A stretch of 64,000 bases of DNA from a virus (IMGVR_UViG_3300025133_000022:1-64000), one strand, 5' to 3'; positions 2,658 to 57,024 are shown, counted from the first letter of the stretch. Notes: generated from the letters alone by a model not told the origin. Numbers and translations are program-made.

Positions 2658-5609
2658 TCACATCCTATGGTGGCCAATTGGGCTACTGCTACTTAGAGCC
2701 TGTAATGTTTTTCTTTGGTGAAGGGCCATCCGGGCCTTTCTTGCCCTAGAAAGAGCCTTTCCCGAACCATACTGTTTAAAAGCAGCTGATCGACGTTTGC
2801 TGTGAATCTGGTTGCTGGTACCAACAGTGTCAAGAGCCATAACGGCATCAAGACGACCGTATCCGTTTCTATGGCTAAGTTTATTACTGTTTTCATTACG
2901 TCCTTTTGTTCTGATGAAGCCAGCAAGATCTTGAAGCTGTTCCTGCATATAACTTGTGCTCGGGGTACTTGCAGCCGACATAATTTGTGGGCCAACATGG
3001 TCTGCCCCCACATTGTAACGACTACCTAGATCCGCAGCAAGTGCAGCCGAAGCTGGTGTAAACTGCCCTGATGTTTGGGCAGCATTCATTGCGCTTACCA
3101 TCATCATTGTTCCGGCGTTCTTCACAACAGATTCAGGATTGGCCAACTGGTTAAATGTCACTCTGTTTCCAGAAGCAGCTGTATGCTCATAAAAACTACG
3201 AGCCCATGGCTGGCTCCACATACCCCTGTTAGTCTGATAGGCTCTTGTTTCAGCTTCTTTTAGCGCAGCATAATTAATACTTGCGTATTGTGCCTTTCCA
3301 AAAGGCAAATGGCTAGCTATTCCTCTTTTCACAAGTTCGTAGTTAAGGTTTCGCCCATCAGCGTAAACAGCACCCAGTGCACGACCATATGTTATTTCGT
3401 TTGGGTTGAAGATTAAATCAATATCACTGGCGCCAGCAAGCATAGCTTGGAAAGCCTGCGTTGCTTGATTGGCAAATGGTTGTGCCGGTCTATCTCCGTG
3501 TGCAACTTCCGGAGAGTCAAGGCCAGCCAGTCGGAAACTATAAGACTTATTTAAACCAAAGAAATCTTGCAATGCACCTGTGAGCCCACCTCTGCGAATT
3601 GTTACAGTATCAGCATCGTCTGCCGTAAGTTTCCAGTTCCCATCTTTAATATTGATCTTTTTCAGATCTCCTCTCATGCCGTAATCAGCACCCGCAACTG
3701 TTTGTCCACTTTTTACAAAATCATAGCCACCACCAATAAATGGACTCCAGGTAGGCAGCGAAGGCACCTTGTTTTGATAGTGTTGTGCTCCGTACTGGAC
3801 ACGCAACCACTTCTCTCGCTCGCGGAGCATTTCTTGGTCGATGAAAACTTGCTGAACCCCAACAGGTCCACGGTATGGTGAACCAAAGTCAGTCATGCTA
3901 TGGCGTTGCTGTTTCGCAACGGCTCCCTCGGACATTCCCTCGATTTGCTGCCTGCTAACCCATTCGTCATAACCATAATGCAGAATGGATTCTGGGCGTG
4001 CAGGCTGTTGTTGAAACACGCTTGCCGTCGCTCCAATAGCTGACAATGCAGCAGCAGCGCCTGCAAATACGCCTGCACGCCCTCGTGCGGCCCTAACACC
4101 CATCTCCATAAGCTCAAGGCCAACACCAGCCTTCGGTCGCTGCAGGACCTTGCTTAAGCGTGCACTTGCACCGCCAACTTGAATTTGAGAATACTGGTTG
4201 CGCAACTGAGAAAGACGATCGTGTACATATCGATTAAGACCTTGCTCGTCCTGAGAGTGCTGACTCATGCGTTGCCAAAGCGCATCTAAATCAACCTGGT
4301 CGTAACGTCCCTCTGCACGCACGTGCCCAAGGACCTGATCCATTGTACTGTAATTTGTACGCGTACTTCTTGTGCGCCAAACCTGAGTAAACTGCCCTTT
4401 GGGTGTAAGTTGGCTTTGAGCGAAAGGCAAACCGCCTTGTCGCTGCTGAGTAAACCCTTGTTTTAAGATATCCTGCTGAGCGCGTTGCAGTCGTTTCAGA
4501 GCCTGCTCTTCCTGCAGGATCGGTGAGTGTTCTTCCAGAGCCTGGAAATACATACTGACTTGCCCTAAGACACCATCGCTACCTTCTTTCAAATATCTCT
4601 TACCTAGCTCAGTACCCTCTGCTACGTGTTGAAGAGCACTAGTAAGCTTTACCCCTCTTTCGAGAACATAGCTTTCATGAATAGCTACATCTTCTGCTGC
4701 ACGGTGAACTTCCCTCATTCCGATACGCTCGGTATTGCCCTCTGCAAGAGCGTGGAGCCTGTGAGAGATATCTACACCTGTACCAAGGTAGTTTAAGTCC
4801 TTCTCTGTGAAGCCAAGTTTCTTTCCGTACGAATGGAGTGCGCGCGTCACATCCTGAATATCACGAACTGCCGTCTCCCCCGCCTTGGGTTGGTTTTGCA
4901 GGTAAGCTTTCCAAACACCAGTCCAGTCTCCATTTGCTTGAGCACGAGTACGCGCACGAGTAACTTCTGAACCAGTTACGTAGAACGGGTCGGGGCTTTG
5001 CGGATTCCATGTCTCTAATCCGGACTTGAACTGCTCAGCAGCTTCGGGACCCAGCGCCCCAAGCTGTGCGCCAACTTGCTTGCTTTCAAAAACAGCATTG
5101 GCAATCCAAACGGTCTTGCCACTCATTACCTGCTTGAGAGTTCCAAGAGCATCTTCAACACCAACCTGTTTCCCCAGGTTGGCTTTTATGCCAAGTTTTT
5201 CAAACCTGGTAGTACGAGCAGCGTTTTGAGCATTTATCTCGGCTGATGACGCTCCTAGTAAGTGCGGGTAGTGCTGAATCATACTTGCAAGCCATGGCTG
5301 CTGCTCACGCAATAGCGCCATTGTCTGTCCACGAGGAACTGGTGCTCCTGCTTGCCTCTCGACTTGAGCATGAAGTGCGTGCATCCAGTTACTGTACTTG
5401 TGTGCAGTGTATTGGTCAGCCGATGTACTTGCCAGCTTGGTATGCTCTTGTGGCATAGTCTGGATGGTTACTGCATTTGGGTTCAGTACAAAACTTTGCA
5501 AGTTGCGCGACTGCACATCCATAAAAGCCAGCTCATGCATGCCGGCACCACGTTCGAGACCAAGGGTCTCAGTGTCAAGAATAATTGCACGACGAAGTAA
5601 TTCAGACAC
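2658..5609 (-). CDS. DnaQ-like exonuclease / staphylococcal-nuclease fusion, putative virion protein
   Basis: 983 residues from GTG 5609 (AGGAGTACAG before it). N-terminal domain, residues about 7-315, carries the DEDDh exonuclease motifs: IILDTETLGLE (D12, E14), IANAVFESKQ (N171; the usual Asp after Phe is Glu 175) and HRAAEDVAIH (H302, D307). A long middle part has coiled-coil character and one hydrophobic Ala-rich segment near 513-530. Residues about 665-800 match the staphylococcal nuclease fold: SFRLAGLDSPE (R693, E701), YGRALGAVYADGR (R743) and a final GMWSQ, so all three catalytic residues are kept. The C-terminus is basic. DnaQ domains remove 3' ends of DNA; SNase domains cleave DNA and RNA with Ca2+. 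The setting among packaging/virion genes suggests an ejected enzyme that attacks host nucleic acid or processes phage DNA (inference). I know no standard phage family with this pairing. Confidence 0.85.
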   Translation of the reverse strand: MSELLRRAIILDTETLGLERGAGMHELAFMDVQSRNLQSFVLNPNAVTIQTMPQEHTKLASTSADQYTAHKYSNWMHALHAQVERQAGAPVPRGQTMALLREQQPWLASMIQHYPHLLGASSAEINAQNAARTTRFEKLGIKANLGKQVGVEDALGTLKQVMSGKTVWIANAVFESKQVGAQLGALGPEAAEQFKSGLETWNPQSPDPFYVTGSEVTRARTRAQANGDWTGVWKAYLQNQPKAGETAVRDIQDVTRALHSYGKKLGFTEKDLNYLGTGVDISHRLHALAEGNTERIGMREVHRAAEDVAIHESYVLERGVKLTSALQHVAEGTELGKRYLKEGSDGVLGQVSMYFQALEEHSPILQEEQALKRLQRAQQDILKQGFTQQRQGGLPFAQSQLTPKGQFTQVWRTRSTRTNYSTMDQVLGHVRAEGRYDQVDLDALWQRMSQHSQDEQGLNRYVHDRLSQLRNQYSQIQVGGASARLSKVLQRPKAGVGLELMEMGVRAARGRAGVFAGAAAALSAIGATASVFQQQPARPESILHYGYDEWVSRQQIEGMSEGAVAKQQRHSMTDFGSPYRGPVGVQQVFIDQEMLREREKWLRVQYGAQHYQNKVPSLPTWSPFIGGGYDFVKSGQTVAGADYGMRGDLKKINIKDGNWKLTADDADTVTIRRGGLTGALQDFFGLNKSYSFRLAGLDSPEVAHGDRPAQPFANQATQAFQAMLAGASDIDLIFNPNEITYGRALGAVYADGRNLNYELVKRGIASHLPFGKAQYASINYAALKEAETRAYQTNRGMWSQPWARSFYEHTAASGNRVTFNQLANPESVVKNAGTMMMVSAMNAAQTSGQFTPASAALAADLGSRYNVGADHVGPQIMSAASTPSTSYMQEQLQDLAGFIRTKGRNENSNKLSHRNGYGRLDAVMALDTVGTSNQIHSKRRSAAFKQYGSGKALSRARKARMALHQRKTLQALSSSSPIGHHRM

Positions 5610-10062: not shown

Positions 10063-10113
10063 GAGAAGGTAGCCCGCTGGAGGCTACCTTCTCTTTTATG
10101 GCACTTACGCCAT
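10063..10113 (+). terminator. Terminator + second hairpin cassette, copy 4
   Basis: GAGAAGGTAGCC/GGCTACCTTCTC plus TTTT, then ATGGC (10098-10102)/GCCAT (10109-10113). Confidence 0.8.
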
Positions 10114-10129
10114 GATCAAGGAGATCAAC

Positions 10130-10429: not shown

Positions 10430-10475
10430 GAAGGGTGGTGCAAGCCACCCTTCTCTTTTATGGCAATCAAGCCAT
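10430..10475 (+). terminator. Terminator + second hairpin cassette, copy 5
   Basis: GAAGGGTGG/CCACCCTTC plus CTTTT, then ATGGC (10460-10464)/GCCAT (10471-10475). Confidence 0.8.
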
Positions 10476-10490
10476 GTCCTGGAGGACATT

Positions 10491-11426: not shown

Positions 11427-11431
11427 CATTG

Positions 11432-11478
11432 GAAGGGCACTAGAAGGTGCCCTTCTCTTTTATGGCAATTCCTGCCAT
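11432..11478 (+). terminator. Terminator + second hairpin cassette, copy 6
   Basis: GAAGGGCAC/GTGCCCTTC plus TCTTTT, then ATGGCA (11462-11467)/TGCCAT (11473-11478). Confidence 0.8.
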
Positions 11479-11493
11479 GTCCTGGAGGACATT

Positions 11494-11782: not shown

Positions 11783-11885
11783 GGGGGCCTTCGGGCTCCC
11801 CTCTCTTTTATGGTACTCCGCTTTGGACCTGATGGTCCGGGACTCCGCTGTCCGAGATGACTAGAGGACCAACCATCAGGAGGGG
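11783..11885 (+). promoter_or_regulatory. Terminator and structured leader of the polymerase-like gene
   Basis: A GGGGGCC/GGGCTCCC hairpin with CTCTTTT is followed by GGACC/GGTCC and a long-range pairing CCTGATGG (about 11830)/CCATCAGG (about 11874). This is the longest leader in the block and precedes the largest gene, so it may control it. Confidence 0.5.
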
Positions 11886-11956: not shown

Positions 11957-14900
11957 ATGGACAGACCAACCAACGAAGAGCGCTATAACGCGTTCGCCAA
12001 GAACAACATCATCAGCAACCACATGGACCTCGTATGGGGCATCATGGTTGGCTTCGACCTGGCACCAAGTGTCAGGACATACTGCGCAGCGCTAGGAGAG
12101 GACTTTGAAGTAGAGGCTCTCGAGCATGACCCCATGGGTAAGCTCATCCTTAATCACGTAAGCGATCTGTGGGAGCAGCGGAAGGCCGAGAAGCTGGAGA
12201 AGAGGTGGGCCAAGGAGGTGCGGCGTGTTGCACGTCGCGCCGCATACGCTGACGCTTCGGAGATCAAGGCGAGTAGTCGTCGTGATGGCACCGTGCGATT
12301 CTCCTTCGATACTGCCATGGCCTGCATGGGCCTCATGGCAGAAATCCTCAACTACGAGGGTGTCTCTCAAGAAGAGCCTGTGGTTCTGAATTTACTTAAT
12401 CGCCTCCCCTTCGTCAAGAACGAGAAGGGTAAAGAAACTACCAGACAGCATGATGTTCCTATTAGTGAAGCTGAGAACTTCGGCACCTGTGGTTACGAGC
12501 TATACCAGCTCAAGACCCTATGGAACTCGAAGATCACCGAACTGTGGGACATCTTCGAACGTTGCCTTCCTACCGCAATTGATCGAAGCAGCTATCATCG
12601 TCGGATGCGTGCTCCACTCATCCCCGGCGGCTTCTTGGCTGCGCAGCGCGTCCGCGTCGGCGAACTGCATGTGCGTGGCAAGTCCATGCAGGCTGATGGT
12701 AGTGGGTGGTATGATCCTCACCACGAGGACATGGCTGACCTCATGGCAGAGTACGGTCCTGTCGGACTGCAGTACACTGCCGTCAACCCCATCACCGGTC
12801 ACTTCTTCAAGGGTATCATATACCCAATGGAGAGTATGAATGACTGCGGTGAAGACACTGCGGCCATCCAATTCGACCATCTGCAGGTCAAGGGCGCCAA
12901 GAAGGCTGCCCACAAGACGCTTGCCAAACTTGATCCTCGCGGACTGCTGGCCGGCGCATTCATGCTTGACGGTGTTCACATCGGCATCATGAAGGCCAAG
13001 ACCACGATCGGTAAAGTCTCGGGCTGCTTCGAGACCTTGGAGAACATTGGCCCTAACCCTGCTCACTATGAGAAGGGAAAGGGCAGTGCCAAGTACATCC
13101 GCGATAAGCTTCGTGTGGCTAAACTCATCGCAAGTCTGACTGCTGAGTCAGTCAATGCCATTGGTGAGCTTGGCCCACAAGGCCTGCTCGGTCGTGCCAC
13201 CCGTGACGATCCTCACCTGCGTCGTTTGGCAGAGTTCATCGCTCTGGCAAACGGCAAGGGAGCGGGCATCAACCCGCTCGGCATTCCGCTGCTGGCTTCT
13301 AAGCTGCGGGAGAGCTTGAGTCGTCGCATGTGGGGTCCTGCCAATGGTGCAGGTATCGATGGCAAGTACCCGATGGTCGTGATTGACGCAACCCTGAAGC
13401 CAGGGACCTGCGTCATCGCTGGCTACAAGACCGGCACCAAGCTCGCATGCTGGCGTTTCCCCACCGTTCTCGCCCAGTCCTTGCTGGTTCTCGAGGTCGT
13501 TGGTGGCAAGCGTCATCACCGCGTGGATGATAAGGTTGTTCGCAACCTCATATACATGAACCCGCATGACATCACGACATGTCAGCAGGGTGACGACGAC
13601 GGAGATGAAGTAGGTATCTCCGATGACCCACGAGTCATCGAGTTGTTCAATCATAAGATCGACAACGGTGTCTACCACATCGAGCCCACGTCTGAGAAGC
13701 TCGTTCACCTAGCCAGGGAGCCAAAGGGCAAGGAATATTTACGAAAGAACCCAATGGGGCCAGTTGGTCGCATCACTATCTGGCGTGCAGCTCTGCTCGC
13801 CGTTGGCGATTATCAACTGGCACGTGCCTTCAGTGTCCTCATCCAAGAGGCCATTGACATGCAGAAGAACATCGTCCGCATGACACACCCCCTAAAGGCC
13901 TCCAACCTTAACAACTGGTACAAGAATCGTAATGGTGAGTATCACATCCACTACAAGTGCAACGGCAGTGCAAACTGTCTCTGCACCGAGCGAGTGGATG
14001 GGAAGTGTCCCAATAAGGATAGCGGCTACCTGACGGACAACTGGCTCCAGGAAGAGCCAGGTTTCGACATGGACGTAGTTGAGGATGTCTACAAGAACGC
14101 CCTCATTAGTGCGGGTTGCAGCAGAGTCGTAAAGACCAAGGGTGGCGGGACGAAAGTCATCGCCGGCTGGCCTCTTGGCTGGCGTAACCAGGCTCGCATC
14201 ATCGAGCTCGGAGACGGCAAGAAGGGTGAAAACCCTATCCGAAAGGCAGTGGCTCTAGACAACTGGAAGTCCTGGCGCGAGAAACAGGATGGTGAGTTCA
14301 GTAACTGGGTCCACGTGGCCCACGACCTGGCCATGATTCGCTGGCGCCAATGGCACGACAGCTTCAAAGTGTCAGAGGAAGTACCTACCAAGGACGTCCT
14401 CCACAAGATTCTAACTGCCCTGGGCTCCCCGCTCAAGCCACTACCAATCACGTGGCAGCAATACGCAGAGAAGTCGCACAGGAGTAATCCTGACCCCCTC
14501 CGGGTCCGTGCTGGCATCATTGCCTATGGCGCTGATATGAAGCGGATTCGTACCGAGGGAACCAAGGATGAGGGAAACCTCACTGGTCCAGTCGACGAAT
14601 CAGCGAGAATGGCTAGGATTGACAACATCAGGGCTCACCTGGAGCTAGCGCTCAGCAACCTTAGTCCCCAAGAGCTTCTCACCGTATGGGAGAAGGAACT
14701 GACGGACTGCTGGTACTACGGTAGGCAGGGTAAGCCTAAGTGTTACACAACAGACAAGAAGTCCATTCCAGAAGGAGTGAAGTTCTACACAGCAAACAAG
14801 CCCAACTACGCCTTCATGGCCCTGTGTTCCAGACACTCGGCAATCATGAAGGTCTTGGGCATGGAAGCTTCAGAAGCCTGCAGCTGGACCAACGAGAAGC

Positions 14901-15229
14901 GTTTAGTGTCGTACGTGAAGTGGTGCCGCGCCCAACCTGACAGCTACAAGGCTCTCTCAACGATTATCCGAGGCAACAAGGGTCATCTGAGGGATGTCCA
15001 CGATGAGAACGGCAAGCATCTGCATCTCACTGAGTGCAAAGAATGCACATCTCGGCTCGAAACCGCGCTGGTTCGCTCTATCCGGAGTGACCGCACGGCA
15101 GACGAACAGGAGAAGACAAAGACTCTCATCAGCGCAATGAATAAGCTTCCACACGAAACTGTGGAAGGCACCCAGCAAGAAGAGCCTGCGTACGTAGAAG
15201 TGTACATAGATGACAATCCATACGGTTAG
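11957..15229 (+). CDS. Single-chain double-psi beta-barrel RNA polymerase-like protein
   Basis: 1090 residues; ATG 11957 follows GGAGGGCATAATTC. Residues 546-550 read DDDGD inside QQGDDDGDEVGI, the DxDGD metal-binding motif of the catalytic double-psi barrel in cellular RNA polymerase beta' chains, YonO-type phage polymerases and eukaryotic RNA-dependent polymerases. About 55 residues before it, WRFPTV matches the conserved R-x-P-T strand that precedes the motif in beta'. A Lys-rich stretch near residue 310 (HLQVKGAKKAAHK) could belong to the first barrel. CNGSANCLC...C near residue 670 may bind zinc. Length is like the single-chain YonO polymerase and unlike split phiKZ-type subunits. Expected role: phage transcription from the repeated intergenic signals. 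The family assignment rests on motif and order, not on an alignment. Confidence 0.75.
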   Translation: MDRPTNEERYNAFAKNNIISNHMDLVWGIMVGFDLAPSVRTYCAALGEDFEVEALEHDPMGKLILNHVSDLWEQRKAEKLEKRWAKEVRRVARRAAYADASEIKASSRRDGTVRFSFDTAMACMGLMAEILNYEGVSQEEPVVLNLLNRLPFVKNEKGKETTRQHDVPISEAENFGTCGYELYQLKTLWNSKITELWDIFERCLPTAIDRSSYHRRMRAPLIPGGFLAAQRVRVGELHVRGKSMQADGSGWYDPHHEDMADLMAEYGPVGLQYTAVNPITGHFFKGIIYPMESMNDCGEDTAAIQFDHLQVKGAKKAAHKTLAKLDPRGLLAGAFMLDGVHIGIMKAKTTIGKVSGCFETLENIGPNPAHYEKGKGSAKYIRDKLRVAKLIASLTAESVNAIGELGPQGLLGRATRDDPHLRRLAEFIALANGKGAGINPLGIPLLASKLRESLSRRMWGPANGAGIDGKYPMVVIDATLKPGTCVIAGYKTGTKLACWRFPTVLAQSLLVLEVVGGKRHHRVDDKVVRNLIYMNPHDITTCQQGDDDGDEVGISDDPRVIELFNHKIDNGVYHIEPTSEKLVHLAREPKGKEYLRKNPMGPVGRITIWRAALLAVGDYQLARAFSVLIQEAIDMQKNIVRMTHPLKASNLNNWYKNRNGEYHIHYKCNGSANCLCTERVDGKCPNKDSGYLTDNWLQEEPGFDMDVVEDVYKNALISAGCSRVVKTKGGGTKVIAGWPLGWRNQARIIELGDGKKGENPIRKAVALDNWKSWREKQDGEFSNWVHVAHDLAMIRWRQWHDSFKVSEEVPTKDVLHKILTALGSPLKPLPITWQQYAEKSHRSNPDPLRVRAGIIAYGADMKRIRTEGTKDEGNLTGPVDESARMARIDNIRAHLELALSNLSPQELLTVWEKELTDCWYYGRQGKPKCYTTDKKSIPEGVKFYTANKPNYAFMALCSRHSAIMKVLGMEASEACSWTNEKRLVSYVKWCRAQPDSYKALSTIIRGNKGHLRDVHDENGKHLHLTECKECTSRLETALVRSIRSDRTADEQEKTKTLISAMNKLPHETVEGTQQEEPAYVEVYIDDNPYG

Positions 15230-27196: not shown

Positions 27197-28223
27197 TGAT
27201 CTGAAACTTAGACACTGTTCTCCAAAAAGGAGTCTAGGACGAGGCTCTACAGATCATACCCAAGCCAGGTGTCTGGTCCTTCGGGACAGGGCCCTGGGGC
27301 GGCTTAGCGTCCATTAGGATAATCTGCGGTAACGCAGGAAAGGGAGAACAGACAAACTCCCGCCAATTAGTGCTTGCACTAAGGTCCAGCTAAGCAATCT
27401 CAGACTTCAGGTTAAAACCTGGACTATCACTTCAGTGGTGGGATAGTCGGTAAGTTGTAGGATGGAGAGATAAGCGATGTCTAACCCGGAGCAGTAGCAA
27501 TACTATTCGTAAGGAAGCACGTGAAGAGGTCCTGGGAAGGATTACCTCCATCCAAATCCATGCAACGAACGAGGAAAGTCAAGAGAAGTTGCGTTCATAA
27601 GGAGCAAAGCCAGCTCCCAAATAGTCCAATTGGGTAGAACCATAGGGCACGCAGCAGTACGGAGGATGAAAGGTCACAAACCTGGAATCCAATGACACCG
27701 GTAAAGGCGGCTACGCCGAATGCCACGAGAGAGTGTGGGACTTTGCAAACCAAAAGTTTGCGAACCTACTCGTCAAAGCACTCTCTCAGTCTGGGCTCAC
27801 GCTCGGAGTAAATCGAGCACTCCAAATTAAACAACGGAATCAAAACGCAAAAGTCTTTGACGACTATGAAGTGAAAGCAGCCTAAGACCAAGCCTCAAGA
27901 GGTCCTTGGTGTATGGAGTCCCGCAAGGACAAAATACTTGGTAGCTAGAAAGCATATGTGGACCCGCAATTCCACAAATGCAAGAAAGCGCCGATCAGCT
28001 CATAGTAAGGGAGACTGGAACCCTCAAAAGACCAGTGGCTGTGGCATGTACCTGTGGCAACACAGGTGGACACGTTCTTAGCTATTAGGCCTCGCAGCCT
28101 AATCGGTACGGGAATTAAAGAATGACCACAAGAAGACTTAATCTCAGTCTTCTCTTCCTTCTCTTTTGTAATCTTGATTTGCAAAAGAGAAATCAGATTA
28201 TGAGGGTGGGTAAAACCACCCTC
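27197..28223 (+). ncRNA. Large dense structured noncoding RNA region
   Basis: About 1 kb with no supported gene and hairpins throughout: TGATCTG/CAGATCA (27197-27256), a GTCC ttcg GGAC tetraloop hairpin inside CCAGG/CCTGG, CTGCG gtaa CGCAG, TTAGTGC/GCACTAA, CAGGTT/AACCTG, GACTATC/GATAGTC, GAGAGAGTG pairing with CACTCTCTC about 70 bases away, GCAAAC/GTTTGC, CCTGTG gcaa CACAGG, TTAGGC/GCCTAA and AGAAGACT/AGTCTTCT, ending in a terminator at 28202-28223. Large ornate RNAs of the GOLLD and ROOL classes occur in phages next to tRNA genes; this resembles them in size, density of structure and setting, but I cannot match their consensus by eye. May be one RNA or several. Confidence 0.55.
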
Positions 28224-31365: not shown

Positions 31366-32568
31366 ATGCAAACCGAAACCACCATCAATAAGCCCCACTT
31401 CAACATCGGCACCATCGGTCACGTCGACCATGGCAAGACCACGCTGACTGCGGCGATCAGCGCAACCCTGGCCAGCCAGAACGGCGCCAAAGCTGTTGAC
31501 TTCGATCAGATCGACAACGCCCCTGAAGAGAAGGCTCGCGGTATCACCATCAACACCGCACACATCCAGTACGAGACCAGCACGCGTGAGTACGCCCACA
31601 TGGACTGTCCAGGTCACGCCGATTACATCAAGAACATGATCACCGGTGCAGCCCAGATGGACGGCGCTATCCTGCTCGTCGATGGCTCTCAGGGTCCTGA
31701 ACCCCAGACCATCGAGCACATCCTGCTCGCGCGTCAAGTCGGCGTAAAGCACATGGTTGTGTTTGTCAACAAGTGTGACATGCAAGAAGACCCTGAAATC
31801 CTCGAGCTTGTTCAGATGGAAGCCGAAGAGATCCTAGAGAGCAACGACTTCGAAAACGTCACCTTCGTCTTCGGCTCTGCTCTCAAGGCCCTGGAAGCCA
31901 TCCAAGGTGGCGCAGACCACACGGATCCAGCATGCGCATGCATCCTGGACTTGATGCATGCAATCGATCTCATCAAACAGCCCGAGCGAGACCTAAACAG
32001 CCCATTTCGCATGAGCATCGAAGACGTCTTCTCCATCAAAGGCAGAGGAACCGTCGTCACTGGATGTGTCGATCGCGGCAGTGTCAAAGTCGGAGACAAA
32101 GTCGAAATCATCGGCTTTGGAGAAGAACGTGAAGTCGTGGTAACGGGCACGCAGGCATTCCGTAAGGACATCCCTGCTGCCGAAGCCGGCATGAATGTCG
32201 GTCTACTTCTCCGTGGCGTCGCCAAGGACGAAATCAGTACTGGTCAAGTCATGGCGTTCCCCGGCTCCATCAAAAGCTATAAGAATTTCACTTGTGACTT
32301 CTTGACACTAACAGCAGAAGAAGGTGGACGAGTTCATCCGTTCAAACCCGGCTACAAGCCCCAGTTCTTCTTCGGCACAACAAATGTCACCGGCACCATC
32401 CAGACCATCGACAAAGATGGTGTTGAACAGCCGATCTGCACCCCAGGTGACCGCATCACCTGCAACGTAGAGCTGATGAAAGATGCAGGCATGGACGTAG
32501 GTACTCGTTTTGCAGTTCGAGAAGGCAGCCGTACCATCGGTGCAGGTATGATCACCGCTGTCAAGTAA
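31366..32568 (+). CDS. tuf: Elongation factor Tu, phage-encoded
   Basis: 400 residues, full length. GTPase motifs at the same positions as bacterial EF-Tu: GHVDHGKT 18-25, RGITINT with Thr 61, DCPGH 80-84 (catalytic H84), NKCD 135-138, SALK 171-174; domains 2 and 3 follow, ending SRTIGAG. The switch after DCPGH reads [13 protein letters not shown], losing the Arg of the usual QTREH. The Lit cleavage context RGITI and the Thr targeted by Doc are unchanged, so it is not an obvious escape variant. It would deliver aminoacyl-tRNA to ribosomes, or serve a polymerase complex as host EF-Tu does for Qbeta. Higher G+C than its downstream neighbours. Confidence 0.95.
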
Positions 32569-43248: not shown

Positions 43249-44610
43249 ATGAGCTACCAAGGCATCATAACCACAGTCAAGCTGAAACCACATCCTAGTG
43301 CAGACAAATTACTTCTTGCAGAAGTGGCAGGACACCAGCTAGTCTGCGCCAAGAATGCATACGAAGACGGTGACATCGTCATTTTCTTCCCCGAAGGTGG
43401 CCAACTCAGCCACCCGCTCTGCTGGTACAATGACCTCTACCGAGAAAACAAAGGTGAAAACCGCACACCTAATGTCTATGGATACTTTAGTGAAAATCGT
43501 CGAGTACGCAGCATTAAATTACGTGGTGAAATCTCAGAAGGCTTCATGCTTCCACTCGAAGGCTTGGCTTTCGTTGGCTCAGCCAAACCCCCGAGCGAAC
43601 TCCTTCGTCCCGGCATGCTTATCAACGAACTGCTAGGCAACGAAATCTGCAGAAAATACGAAACCCGTGCAACGAAACAAGCCCGACAAAAAGCAAGTGG
43701 TAAAGCTCGTAAAGACATTAACAACTTTGCCAAGGTTGGACAAACCAGTAAATTCCGCTACGTGATGAACAGCATCCCTAAAGATGCCATCATAACCATA
43801 TCTGAAAAGATTCATGGTACCAGTGGCAGAACCGGTCTTGTTAAAATCAAAGAACGTGTTGACCTACCATACCCCTGGTGGAAGCGTGCTTTGTACTGGA
43901 CTCGAGGACTGTTGCCCAACTGGACTTACGATCCAAAATACGTACCCCACACCCATACGCGAGAATTCAAACACCTCAGTGGCAGTCGCCGTATGATTGT
44001 GGCTCAAGACGAACAAATCTGCAAAACTCGTCCAGATGGTACTCCAATTCCACTTGGTTACCGCAAAAAGATTCACAACGCACTAATCAGCTGCCTCCGC
44101 CCAGGAGAAAGCCTATATTACGAAATCGTAGTGTGTAACGATCAAGGTGTATCCGACTTCCGACAAAAAATCGGCAACAACAAAAGCGACACAGTTCTCA
44201 AAAGTCTTCGAAAGAAATACGATGAACAAATGAACTATAGTTATGGGGTTGCTCCAGGCAGTTACAACATCTGGATATATCGCATCACCATGCAAAACGA
44301 ACGAGGTGATGCGATTCGCCTAGGATGGAATCAAATGACCAAGCGTGCCGCAGAGCTTGGAATTAGTACCGTTCCAGTGCTTGATCAATTCATCTACGAT
44401 GGTGACGCAGAGGCTCTTAACAAACGTCTTGCTCTCATCAGTGATGGACCTAGCACTTTAGACAGCACACACATTCGAGAAGGTGTGTGTGTGCATATCG
44501 ACAGTCCTAAAATGCAAAACGTATTTAAGCGAAAGGGTTTTGCATTTTGTCACTTGGAAGGAATAGCCAAGAACGACGATGAGTACGTTGATCCAGAAGA
44601 CATTGCGTGA
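43249..44610 (+). CDS. RNA ligase, Rnl5/DraRnl-like
   Basis: 453 residues. Ligase motif I EKIHGTSGR with Lys 187 as the AMP-accepting residue; later YYEIVV (motif III-like), REGVCVHI (motif IV) and FKRKGFAF (motif V). The N-terminal 120 residues form a domain (KLKPHPSADKLLLAEVAG...) like the OB-type N-terminal module of the Deinococcus RNA ligase group. A long insertion lies between motifs I and III. Such ligases reseal 3'-OH/5'-P breaks in structured RNA. With the 2H enzyme, CCA-adding enzyme and tRNAs this suggests tRNA repair. Confidence 0.8.
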   Translation: MSYQGIITTVKLKPHPSADKLLLAEVAGHQLVCAKNAYEDGDIVIFFPEGGQLSHPLCWYNDLYRENKGENRTPNVYGYFSENRRVRSIKLRGEISEGFMLPLEGLAFVGSAKPPSELLRPGMLINELLGNEICRKYETRATKQARQKASGKARKDINNFAKVGQTSKFRYVMNSIPKDAIITISEKIHGTSGRTGLVKIKERVDLPYPWWKRALYWTRGLLPNWTYDPKYVPHTHTREFKHLSGSRRMIVAQDEQICKTRPDGTPIPLGYRKKIHNALISCLRPGESLYYEIVVCNDQGVSDFRQKIGNNKSDTVLKSLRKKYDEQMNYSYGVAPGSYNIWIYRITMQNERGDAIRLGWNQMTKRAAELGISTVPVLDQFIYDGDAEALNKRLALISDGPSTLDSTHIREGVCVHIDSPKMQNVFKRKGFAFCHLEGIAKNDDEYVDPEDIA

Positions 44611-51391: not shown

Positions 51392-52096
51392 ATGTCAAAC
51401 CCAACTCAATGGGACGTAGGAGGCTACGTCCGCGATGAACTCCTAGGTATTCCTAGCAAAGATCGCGACATTATGGTTGACCTGCCAAGCTACGAAAAAC
51501 TAGAAGCATGGGCAGAACAACATCTAACAAAAATCTATGAACGACGTCCTGAAATGCTTATCTTGCGAGGACACGGCCCCCTGGGGCCAGTCGATTACAA
51601 CCTCCCGCGCAACGAATCAGCCTACAGTGACAGCAGAACTCCAAACTCAGTAACGGTAGGCACTTTCGAGCAAGATATGGCTCGCAGAGATTTTACTTGT
51701 AATGCTATTGCCAAAAACATTGCAACCGGTGAAATCATAGACCTCCATGGAGGAATGTTAGACATCAATATGCGACGACTACGAATGGTAGGAAGCGCTT
51801 ACGCACGCCTTGATGAAGACCACCTACGAATTGTTCGTGCAATTCGATTCTGCATCACCAAAGGTTTCACACCATATGGAGAATTAGAGAAAATTCTACT
51901 ACATGGTGAATATGCAGATAAACTAGAATCCCTACCTGTTGAACGCATTGCAAATGAAATGTGTAAAGCATTTCATTTCAATACTGCATCAACACTGCAC
52001 TTTCTTGCGTCAATTCATCCAAAATATACAGAAGCCATCTTCTCAAAAAGACTCTGGCTACTACCAACCTTAAAAAATCGCAAATCTGCGGGATAA
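51392..52096 (+). CDS. cca: CCA-adding enzyme / tRNA nucleotidyltransferase
   Basis: 234 residues. Class II head: DVGGYVRDELLG and KDRDIMV carry the metal-binding Asp pair; RRDFTCNAIA, DLHGGMLDINMRRLRMVG and EDHLRIVRAIRF follow in the expected order. The long C-terminal tail domains of cellular enzymes are cut short. Most tRNAs in this window lack encoded CCA, so the enzyme would finish or repair them. Confidence 0.9.
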   Translation: MSNPTQWDVGGYVRDELLGIPSKDRDIMVDLPSYEKLEAWAEQHLTKIYERRPEMLILRGHGPLGPVDYNLPRNESAYSDSRTPNSVTVGTFEQDMARRDFTCNAIAKNIATGEIIDLHGGMLDINMRRLRMVGSAYARLDEDHLRIVRAIRFCITKGFTPYGELEKILLHGEYADKLESLPVERIANEMCKAFHFNTASTLHFLASIHPKYTEAIFSKRLWLLPTLKNRKSAG

Positions 52097-55440: not shown

Positions 55441-57024
55441 ATGCCAAACCCAAACTTATTCCACACCAAAACATCCCAGCCACTAGCCACCAGCCACAAC
55501 AACGCAGGTGGTCGTGCTTACAAAACTTCCGATATGCATGCGCTTGCACAGCTAGCATGCACTGGTGTATTTAACAACACCTACTACACCAAAGCTGAAA
55601 ACCAACTCAAGCAAGCTCGCGCGCTCTGCAAAAAGGTAAGCCCAGCAACAGTTGCACGTATCGCTGTATACTCACGTCAACAAGGCATGATGAAAGACAT
55701 GCCTGTGCTCTTGCTTACCTACTTGTTTTCCATCGAAGACAAGAAATACTTCAATGCCGCATTCCCGTATGTCGTAAACAACATCGGACAGCTACGCAGC
55801 TTTGTGCAAATGGTTCGTAGTGGTGTTTGTGGTCGTCGCTCTCTTGGCTCTGCAGGCAAGCGCGCAATCGCAAACATGCTCAACACCATGACTCCTCGTC
55901 GAATCTTCTGGCAAGCCACTGGCAAAGGTATGAGTTTTGCAGATGTTCTCAAGCTTGCTCATGTAAGACCACAAAGTGCAGCACACGACAGCTTCTTTGC
56001 CTACATGTTAGGTAAAAGTGTTTCTGAAGACTTTGAGAAACTACCAGAAAACATCCAGCACTTCGAATTGTTCAAACGCAAAGAGTACAGCGAAGTACCA
56101 GATGTACCATTTCAACGCCTGACCAATCTAGATCTTAGTGTAATCCAGTGGGGTGAAGTCACGCGCAAAATGACTTGGAACCAGCTTCGTTTCAACCTAA
56201 ACAACCTCACTCGCAAAGGTGTGTTCAAGGACACTCAGCTGGTTCTCGAAGTAGCAACCAAACTTCGCAATCCCAAAGCAGTGCTTGGCAGCAAGGTTTT
56301 GCCATTCAGTCTATACAACACTGTCAAACATCTAGATGACAGTGTTCCACAAGCTCTAAAGAACGCTATGGTCGATGCACTGGAAATCAGCGGACAAAAC
56401 GCCCCTGTGCTTCAAGGCAACACCCTCGTTCTCGTCGACTCTAGTGGCTCTATGAACTCGCCAACAACTGGCTACCGTGCTGGCGCAACCACCACCATGC
56501 GTTGCGTCGAAGCAGCTGGATACTTTGCAGTCAGCATACTCAAAGCCAACCCAGACAGCACCACCATCCTGCCATTTGACGGCCGAGTTCATCCAGTGAA
56601 CTTAAATCCACGTGATAGCATGGCAACCTTAATCAAAAAACTCCCAACTGCAGGCGGAAGCACCAATATTGCTTGCGGTATTGAATGGGCACTACACACA
56701 AGTACAAAATTCAACCAAATCATCATTGTTTCTGACAATGAGAGCTGGGTGAACTCTGATCAATACATGTGGTACAGTCACAAAATCACTGCAACCAAGC
56801 AAGCTTTTGAAAGATACCGTCGTCACAAGAGCCCTGGCTGTAAAATGATTTGTATCAATATTCAGCCAAGCACTACAACAACGCAGGCACCCGATGACAA
56901 AAATACACTAAACGTAGGAGGACTCAGCGACGCAGTCTTCCGTGTTGCTAGCCAATTCCTCACCAGTCGTGGTAACGCGCACTGGGAAGATGTACTTAAC
57001 AAGATTCTTCCGAATCTCAAATAA
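55441..57024 (+). CDS. rsr: Ro60/TROVE RNA-binding protein
   Basis: 527 residues, full length. N-terminal TROVE helical-repeat ring (about 1-320: RAYKTSDMHALAQLACTG, AVYSRQQGMMKDMPVLLL, LGSAGKRAIANML) and C-terminal VWA domain with MIDAS DSSGSM at 333-338, GGSTNI and VSDNESW. Ro60 binds Y RNAs on its outer face and misfolded RNA ends in its hole; bacterial Rsr works with PNPase in rRNA decay and stress. Ro is known from some phages, for example in the Bxz1 group of mycobacteriophages. The window has several tRNA-like RNAs that could be its Y-RNA partners. Confidence 0.92.
   Translation: MPNPNLFHTKTSQPLATSHNNAGGRAYKTSDMHALAQLACTGVFNNTYYTKAENQLKQARALCKKVSPATVARIAVYSRQQGMMKDMPVLLLTYLFSIEDKKYFNAAFPYVVNNIGQLRSFVQMVRSGVCGRRSLGSAGKRAIANMLNTMTPRRIFWQATGKGMSFADVLKLAHVRPQSAAHDSFFAYMLGKSVSEDFEKLPENIQHFELFKRKEYSEVPDVPFQRLTNLDLSVIQWGEVTRKMTWNQLRFNLNNLTRKGVFKDTQLVLEVATKLRNPKAVLGSKVLPFSLYNTVKHLDDSVPQALKNAMVDALEISGQNAPVLQGNTLVLVDSSGSMNSPTTGYRAGATTTMRCVEAAGYFAVSILKANPDSTTILPFDGRVHPVNLNPRDSMATLIKKLPTAGGSTNIACGIEWALHTSTKFNQIIIVSDNESWVNSDQYMWYSHKITATKQAFERYRRHKSPGCKMICINIQPSTTTTQAPDDKNTLNVGGLSDAVFRVASQFLTSRGNAHWEDVLNKILPNLK

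What the first reader, a model, noticed from the sequence alone, without database searches (positions are those of the whole stretch)
11957..15229. Single-chain RNA polymerase-like protein in a phage with its own intergenic signals
Seen: DDDGD inside QQGDDDGDEVGI at residues 546-550 and an R-x-P-T strand about 55 residues earlier. Known: DxDGD marks the catalytic double-psi barrel of cellular beta', YonO-type and RNA-dependent polymerases. Inferred: a 1090-residue one-piece polymerase, possibly a new branch, dedicated to phage promoters.
Basis: partly seen in the sequence, partly recalled or inferred. Interest (0 to 1): 0.85.

Follow-up and report, generated by a model that had tools for sequence, protein, structure and literature searches.

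The report
One-piece RNA polymerase of uncultured phages
This large phage and its uncultured relatives carry a previously unnamed one-protein RNA polymerase, a distant cousin of the RNA-copying enzymes of fungi and plants and of a few known phage polymerases, which most likely lets the virus transcribe some of its own genes.

Summary
Observation confirmed: the window encodes an uninterrupted 1090-aa protein with DDDGD at 546-550 and an R-x-P strand 46 residues earlier. Sequence libraries find nothing (Pfam, PHROGs, PDB sequences, 50,697 phage records). Relatives reached through the phage's terminase gave 12 compact full-length homologues (952-1445 aa, 18-33% identity) sharing invariant DG, K285-G, K312, R500-x-P, D546/D548/D550 and Q-x-x-x-D-x-x-K. 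An AlphaFold2 model of the core (pLDDT 86, pTM 0.86) matches only two-barrel RNA polymerases in the PDB at E<1e-3: QDE-1 (TM 0.49-0.58), plant RDR2, phage P23-45 gp64, P74-26 gp62, crAss-phage RNAP and Pol IV. Profile comparison links it to YonO. It is a single-chain two-barrel RNA polymerase, in a new sequence family of the RDRP/YonO clade, most likely a phage transcription enzyme. Sister phages carry a giant form (1843-2175 aa) at the same locus; in 17 of 17 records the gene is divergent from terminase, mostly 9-14 kb away. A conserved intergenic element (hairpin, pyrimidine tract, AATGG, second hairpin) is strongly enriched on the polymerase strand, also in two held-out contigs. It may combine terminator and promoter; that is not shown. 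Activity, template and promoter are untested.

The parts
11957..15229 (+). Single-chain two-barrel RNA polymerase gene, 1090 aa
   Evidence: Open frame; 12 full-length homologues; model matches solved two-barrel RNAPs
12632..12997 (+). DPBB-B (beta-like barrel), residues about 226-347, with invariant D247-G248, K285-G286, K312 and near-invariant K316
   Evidence: Alignment and model; barrel boundaries inferred from predicted strands
13346..13624 (+). DPBB-A (beta'-like barrel), residues about 464-556
   Evidence: Alignment, model, short superpositions on RPB1-type subunits (77 residues at 2.8-2.9 A rmsd)
13454..13462 (+). R500-x-P502 strand motif
   Evidence: Invariant in 13 of 13
13592..13606 (+). 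Catalytic D546-D-D548-G-D550 motif (metal-binding triad, inferred)
   Evidence: Invariant D546, D548, G549, D550; aligns with QDE-1 GGDYDGDMAWVCWDPDIVENF
13757..13867 (+). G601-P-x-G604 and IQEAIDMQK (Q630, D634, K637), probable bridge-helix/trigger-loop region
   Evidence: Invariant Q630, D634, K637; same motif in P23-45 gp64 (IQVAVDRQKRDIQWPD) and D-x-x-K in YonO. The structural role is inferred
14879..15046 (+). C975 and C1027-x-x-C1030, invariant C-terminal cysteines, possible zinc site
   Evidence: Invariant in 13 of 13; metal binding inferred
11783..11814 (+). Intergenic element before the RNAP gene: hairpin + CTCTCTTTTATGG
10063..10116 (+). Same element: hairpin, TTTTATGGC, second small hairpin ATGGC-ACTTAC-GCCAT
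10430..10476 (+). Same element with second hairpin ATGGC-AATCAA-GCCAT
11431..11480 (+). Same element with second hairpin ATGGCA-ATTCC-TGCCAT

Best explanation
The protein is a complete RNA polymerase in one chain. Two double-psi beta-barrels, DPBB-B (residues about 226-347, contributing K285 and K312/K316) and DPBB-A (about 464-556, contributing D546, D548 and D550), are joined by a long helical connector and form one active site that extends RNA by the two-metal mechanism of cellular and RDRP-type enzymes. It belongs to the RDRP/YonO side of the two-barrel superfamily as a new sequence family. Because the gene is the first long one in the non-structural arm, transcribed away from the virion genes, it is most likely made after infection and works as a DNA-dependent, non-virion RNAP for phage genes. 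Shown here: fold match, invariant active-site residues, family, conserved locus. Inferred: catalysis, DNA template, timing, promoter use.
For: (1) Invariant residues in the order DG-KG-K-R.P-D.DGD-Q...D..K over 13 full-length members, 18-33% identical to this one. (2) Core model pLDDT 86.0, pTM 0.86; all 27 PDB matches at E<1e-3 are two-barrel RNAP chains: QDE-1 3e-11 (TMq 0.49-0.58), RDR2 2.5e-9, P23-45 gp64 2.5e-8, P74-26 gp62 3e-8, phi14:2 RNAP 4e-4. The whole-chain model gives RDR2 6e-10, QDE-1 1e-9, phi14:2 3e-5. (3) hhalign to five YonO-family proteins: 95%, E 4e-8 (core 1.8e-8), aligned from DGSG to IDxxK; to the giant sister-phage proteins 98.7%, E 4e-16; negative control against TerL 0.1%, E 0.61. 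(4) Five of ten weak profile hits in PDB sequences are two-barrel RNAPs aligned at the D.DGD or IQ.A.D..K motif. (5) RNAP gene divergent from TerL in 17 of 17 records, 8.7-14.2 kb apart with one at 20.4 kb. (6) No sigma region 4, no RNAP beta subunit and no second copy in this record; a DnaG-type primase/helicase is present separately.
Against: No biochemical or expression data. Models are predictions from 11-13 sequences; TM-scores are moderate (about 0.55 on the core, 0.32-0.41 on the whole chain), and roughly the first 100 and last 45 residues are poorly predicted. hhalign E-values refer to single comparisons, not to a database. With one crAss RNAP sequence hhalign found nothing (E 0.16). 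The fold does not tell a DNA- from an RNA-templated enzyme; QDE-1 has been solved with both templates.
Confidence: 0.86

Rival explanations
1. It is a virion RNAP, packaged and injected to transcribe the earliest genes, like crAss phi14:2 gp66 or P23-45 gp96, rather than a post-infection enzyme.
For: No second phage RNAP was found in the record, and the gene itself is preceded by the candidate signal, so a packaged enzyme would solve the bootstrapping problem. The giant forms resemble crAss RNAP in size.
Against: The gene lies in the non-structural arm, divergent from terminase, in all 17 records, whereas the phi14:2 enzyme sits among structural genes and P23-45 gp96 is fused to the tape measure (PMC10770324).
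Confidence: 0.18
2. It is an RNA-templated polymerase in function, making double-stranded RNA as eukaryotic RDRPs do.
For: The best structural matches are QDE-1 and RDR2.
Against: YonO, which has the same motif order, is a DNA-dependent RNAP (PMC5467207); QDE-1 structures with DNA templates exist; no RNA-silencing context was seen.
Confidence: 0.08
3. It makes primers or otherwise serves replication rather than transcription.
For: Two-barrel folds include replicative PolD, and jumbo-phage RNAPs have been suggested for priming (PMC7824862).
Against: The genome has a DnaG-type primase/helicase and a DNA polymerase III alpha gene; the nearest relatives are RNAPs.
Confidence: 0.04
4. On the element only: the intergenic element is not a promoter of this enzyme but an intrinsic terminator followed by an mRNA 5' hairpin, used by the host RNAP.
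For: The first hairpin plus T tract is a textbook terminator. The element is concentrated near the RNAP gene and was absent from the distal stretches tested.
Against: The pyrimidine tract + AATGG is conserved beyond the U tract and is sometimes separated from it (L130 near 6117, L128 near 7071, L151-L153); no sigma-70-like enrichment.
Confidence: 0.5

Closest known systems
YonO (Bacillus phage SPbeta) and YonO-like phage RNAPs
   Same: Single chain; same order DG, KG, K, R-x-P, D-x-DGD, G, D-x-x-K; hhalign 95%, E 4e-8
   Different: No pairwise similarity (tblastn of phage records found nothing at E<=1); about 250 aa longer, with conserved C-terminal cysteines; a different phage lineage and genome plan
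Thermus phage P23-45 gp64 / P74-26 gp62 non-virion RNAPs (8F72, 8F5M)
   Same: Structural match E 2.5e-8; shared IQ-x-A-[IV]-D-x-x-K motif and R-x-P...D-x-DGD alignment
   Different: About 616 aa; hhalign alone not convincing (14%, E 0.002)
[quoted passage not shown]
   Same: Two-barrel single-chain fold; Foldseek 2.7e-5 whole chain, 4e-4 core
   Different: 2180 aa, virion protein inside the structural gene block; no sequence-profile similarity found (E 0.16)
QDE-1 and plant RDR2 (eukaryotic RDRPs)
   Same: Best structural matches; the DxDGD stretch aligns
   Different: Cellular RNA-silencing enzymes; the Pfam RdRP model PF05183 does not match this genome

Membership tests
Two-barrel RNA polymerases (superfamily) | Asp triad D-x-D-x-D in DPBB-A | tested here: met
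   D546, D548, D550 invariant in 13 of 13; aligned with QDE-1
Two-barrel RNA polymerases (superfamily) | Conserved basic residues from DPBB-B | tested here: met
   K285 and K312 invariant, K316 at least 90%; position in the active site inferred, not measured
Two-barrel RNA polymerases (superfamily) | Two double-psi barrels in the fold | tested here: met
   Predicted core model matches only two-barrel RNAPs at E<1e-3; the barrels were not inspected strand by strand because coordinates are not exposed
RDRP/YonO clade (single-chain) | Both barrels in one chain, DPBB-B before DPBB-A | tested here: met
   Motif order and one open frame
RDRP/YonO clade (single-chain) | No SBHM (flap) insert in DPBB-B (criterion from PMC7824862) | tested here: inconclusive
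   Only about 120 residues span the barrel and 27 lie between K285 and K312, which leaves little room; judged by length only, no explicit SBHM search
RDRP/YonO clade (single-chain) | RNA synthesis in vitro | not testable with these tools
   No biochemistry
YonO sequence family proper | Detectable pairwise sequence similarity to YonO | tested here: not met
   tblastn against phage records that include SPbeta and relatives: no match at E<=1; profile-level homology only
Multi-subunit beta/beta' RNAP (phiKZ/AR9 type) | Separate beta and beta' chains | tested here: not met
   Single frame; PF00562 absent from the record, with working controls in cellular genomes
T7/N4-type single-subunit RNAP | PF00940 palm-type polymerase | tested here: not met
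   No Pfam match to the protein; the genome search was empty but without a positive control
crAss-like virion RNAP | Encoded in the structural block, virion protein | tested here: inconclusive
   Gene is in the non-structural arm; virion content not testable

The most novel reading that the evidence does not exclude
A deep, previously undescribed branch of one-chain two-barrel RNA polymerases is fixed at one locus in a lineage of large uncultured phages, in compact and giant forms, and works with its own composite intergenic signal (terminator hairpin, pyrimidine tract with AATGG start site, 5' hairpin) that ends one transcript and starts the next.
Probability: 0.3. Interest if true: 0.75.

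Novelty: new variant of a known kind. Interest (0 to 1): 0.58.

Why it matters
Only a handful of phage single-chain two-barrel RNAPs have been studied (YonO, crAss gp66, P23-45 gp64/gp96). This adds a family that current libraries do not see, gives over a dozen diverse sequences for tracing the RDRP/YonO side of the superfamily, and shows a roughly two-fold size change of what looks like an orthologous polymerase at a fixed locus. The conserved intergenic element is a concrete, testable promoter candidate; for YonO the promoter sequence was left open by its discoverers (PMC5467207). The annotation matters practically too: these phages would otherwise be read as fully dependent on host transcription.

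Tried and rejected
Direct searches with the single protein (Pfam, PHROGs, PDB sequences, INPHARED tblastn, IMG/VR, GTDB contigs) found only the phage itself or nothing; relatives had to be reached through TerL. The other two D-x-DGD ORFs of the genome (one of 1707 aa in the tail region) were considered as a second, virion RNAP and rejected: no family signal. Plain k-mer enrichment for promoters returned mostly tRNA arm sequences. The intergenic motif was not found in distal parts of two relatives, so it is not a genome-wide promoter there. The PDB profile hits 5ey5 (LBCATS-a), polycystin and glycoproteins were judged chance. A 2025 lineage of large aquatic phages (PMC12619734, 'moraphages') was checked as a possible match and set aside: it reports family B DNA polymerase and no RNAP, while this phage has a DNA polymerase III alpha.

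Full report
WHAT WAS CHECKED. The ORF 11957-15229 is uninterrupted, 1090 aa, ATG start. D-x-DGD by itself is not rare: three ORFs of the whole 192.5-kb record hold it. The protein has no match in Pfam, PHROGs, PDB sequences or 50,697 annotated phage records.

THE PHAGE. The window is part of a 192,537-base virus record whose ends overlap by 535 bases with 5 mismatches, so it is probably a circular or circularly permuted genome of about 192.0 kb. It encodes TerL, portal, maturation protease, tail sheath (myovirus-like), primase-helicase, DNA polymerase III alpha, RecA and RIIA. Structural genes run on the minus strand; the non-structural arm runs on the plus strand from about 8 kb. The RNAP gene is the first long gene of that arm.

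FINDING RELATIVES. TerL finds relatives at 48-70% identity, and an alignment of these finds 80 loci. Searching those records with the RNAP found homologues in 12 records, and the profile added four records with ORFs of about 2,140-2,175 aa. Two more homologues lie on contigs binned as bacterial MAGs, one titled TaraRedSea. Records that seemed to lack the gene mostly end before the expected position. One that covers it (G025) holds an 1843-aa ORF with GDNDGD there, matched by the profile at E 1.7e-6. In 17 of 17 records the RNAP gene is divergent from TerL, 8.7-14.2 kb away (20.4 kb in one). One of these distances (G026) assumes that the record is circular, and G022/G023 are near-identical.

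ANATOMY. Over 13 full-length proteins (this one and 12 others, 18-33% identical to it) the invariant residues include Y213, D247-G248, Q272, G281, K285-G286, K312, G464, G466, D477, G493, R500, P502, D546, D548, G549, D550, E576, G601, G604, Q630, D634, K637, W654, W742, A952, C975, C1027 and C1030. D547 is nearly invariant but varies (DNDGD in one member and in most giants), as expected if only the first, third and fifth positions bind metal. YonO and four phage relatives show the same series: D249-G250, K271-G272, K316, R492-x-P494, D535/D537/D539, G593, D625-x-x-K628.

FOLD. A template-free AlphaFold2 model of the whole chain has pLDDT 73.7, pTM 0.68; Foldseek against the PDB gives RDR2 6e-10, QDE-1 1e-9 and the crAss phi14:2 RNAP 2.7e-5 as the only hits below 1e-3. 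The core alone (residues 180-668) reaches pLDDT 86.0, pTM 0.86; all 27 hits below 1e-3 are two-barrel RNAP chains, with QDE-1 at TM 0.49-0.58 and the P23-45/P74-26 phage RNAPs at 2.5e-8 to 8e-8. 8F72 and 8F5M are P23-45 gp64 and P74-26 gp62 (PMC10770324). RPB1-type subunits of poxviruses superpose over about 77 residues at 2.8-2.9 A, as expected for one barrel (DPBB-A, inferred).

PROFILE COMPARISON. Against YonO: 95.0%, E 4e-8, core 95.4%, 1.8e-8. Against the giant forms: 96.9%, 2e-10, core 98.7%, 4e-16 over 409 columns. Against P23-45 gp64: 14%, 0.0019. Against crAss phi14:2: 0.4%, 0.16. Control TerL: 0.1%, 0.61. These are single-comparison E-values.

FUNCTION. YonO, with the same motif series, is a DNA-dependent RNAP for phage late genes and loses activity when its three aspartates are changed (PMC5467207). 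By analogy and by genome position (non-structural arm, away from virion genes) the best reading is a non-virion phage RNAP. This record has no sigma region-4 domain and no RNAP beta subunit by searches with working controls, and no T7-type RNAP by a search without a positive control. DNA template, timing and partners are not shown.

INTERGENIC ELEMENT. Strong hairpins followed by a T-rich tail are enriched in the early arm (47 against 19.2 +/- 4.6). Beyond the tail lies a conserved pyrimidine tract + A[TC]G[GA] (in this phage CTCTTTTATGG at 10091, 10453, 11455, 11803). The pattern TTT[AT]{0,2}A[CT]G[GA] after a hairpin was defined on loci L125-L134 and then counted: 35 hairpins on the RNAP strand of those ten loci against about 1.9 in shuffled tails, and none on the opposite strand; in this phage 10 against 0.75, and 1 against 1.57 on the other strand. 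Because the pattern was chosen after looking, two contigs not used for it were tested: L154 8 of 16 and L155 6 of 19 hairpins on the RNAP strand (0.37 expected each), 1 of 7 and 0 of 5 on the other. In 29 of 62 elements a second stem of at least 4 Watson-Crick pairs starts inside the A[CT]G[GA] (shuffled 6.7 +/- 2.5, maximum 16 in 500 shuffles), with 23 different 5' arms. By the strict pattern it lies 12-160 bases upstream of the RNAP start in seven of the 13 compact members, this one included, and 91-100 upstream in three giant ones. It was not found in distal 40-kb stretches of two relatives. A terminator followed at once by a start site and a 5' hairpin is a natural reading; whether the phage or the host enzyme uses it is open.

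NOVELTY. The kind (single-chain two-barrel phage RNAP) is known; the sequence family, its giant sister form at the same locus, and the associated intergenic element were not found in the libraries or the papers searched. Most subscription papers are not held, so this is not proof of absence. BFVD holds predicted structures of other uncultured phage proteins with significant matches, some already named RNA-dependent RNA polymerase, so further distant relatives surely exist. It is rated a new variant of a known kind.

Noticed in passing
window 27726-28150 (+): GOLLD RNA (Rfam RF02032, 156 bits), the giant ornate RNA whose cryo-EM structure was reported in 2025 (PMC12286853), here just before the tRNA-rich region.
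   Followed up: partly
window 31366-32568 (+): Full-length phage-encoded EF-Tu (all three domains, Pfam E 6e-58). Elongation factors G, Tu and Ts were reported before in huge phages (PMC7162821).
   Followed up: partly
window 55441-57024 (+): Ro60/TROVE-like protein with vWA domain (Pfam E 2e-18); the phage also has an RNA-ligase-like gene at 43249-44610 and a tRNA nucleotidyltransferase at 51392-52096.
   Followed up: no
L004:4188-4260 (record 67188-67260) and around: About 25 tRNA genes between about 30 and 76 kb, including one with anticodon CUA (called tRNA-Pyl by ARAGORN), a possible amber suppressor; TAG recoding was not tested.
   Followed up: no
record 99271-105907 (L005/L006), intron at L006:3257-3493: DNA polymerase III alpha gene split over three ORFs with at least one group I intron (Rfam 62.9 bits) and an intervening small ORF that may be a homing endonuclease.
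   Followed up: partly
L150:3415-9831, L151:4135-10662, L152:5038-11562, L153:2975-9502, L164:11536-17067: Giant forms (1843-2175 aa) of the polymerase at the same locus in sister phages; the one in L152 carries a helix-hairpin-helix insert (Pfam HHH_3 E 9e-9).
   Followed up: yes
window 8284, 10473, 11477: Repeated start-codon context TGTCCTGGAGGACA-N2-ATG, a small hairpin that contains the ribosome-binding site.
   Followed up: no
L154 (PBPC01000056.1) and L155 (PBNR01000029.1): Contigs filed as Gemmatimonadetes and Gammaproteobacteria MAGs carry this phage polymerase and its intergenic element; they look like phage contigs binned with bacteria.
   Followed up: partly
window 2658-5609 (-): 983-aa protein with a staphylococcal-nuclease domain (Pfam E 1e-16) and a weak N-terminal exonuclease-like match, on the virion-gene strand.
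   Followed up: no
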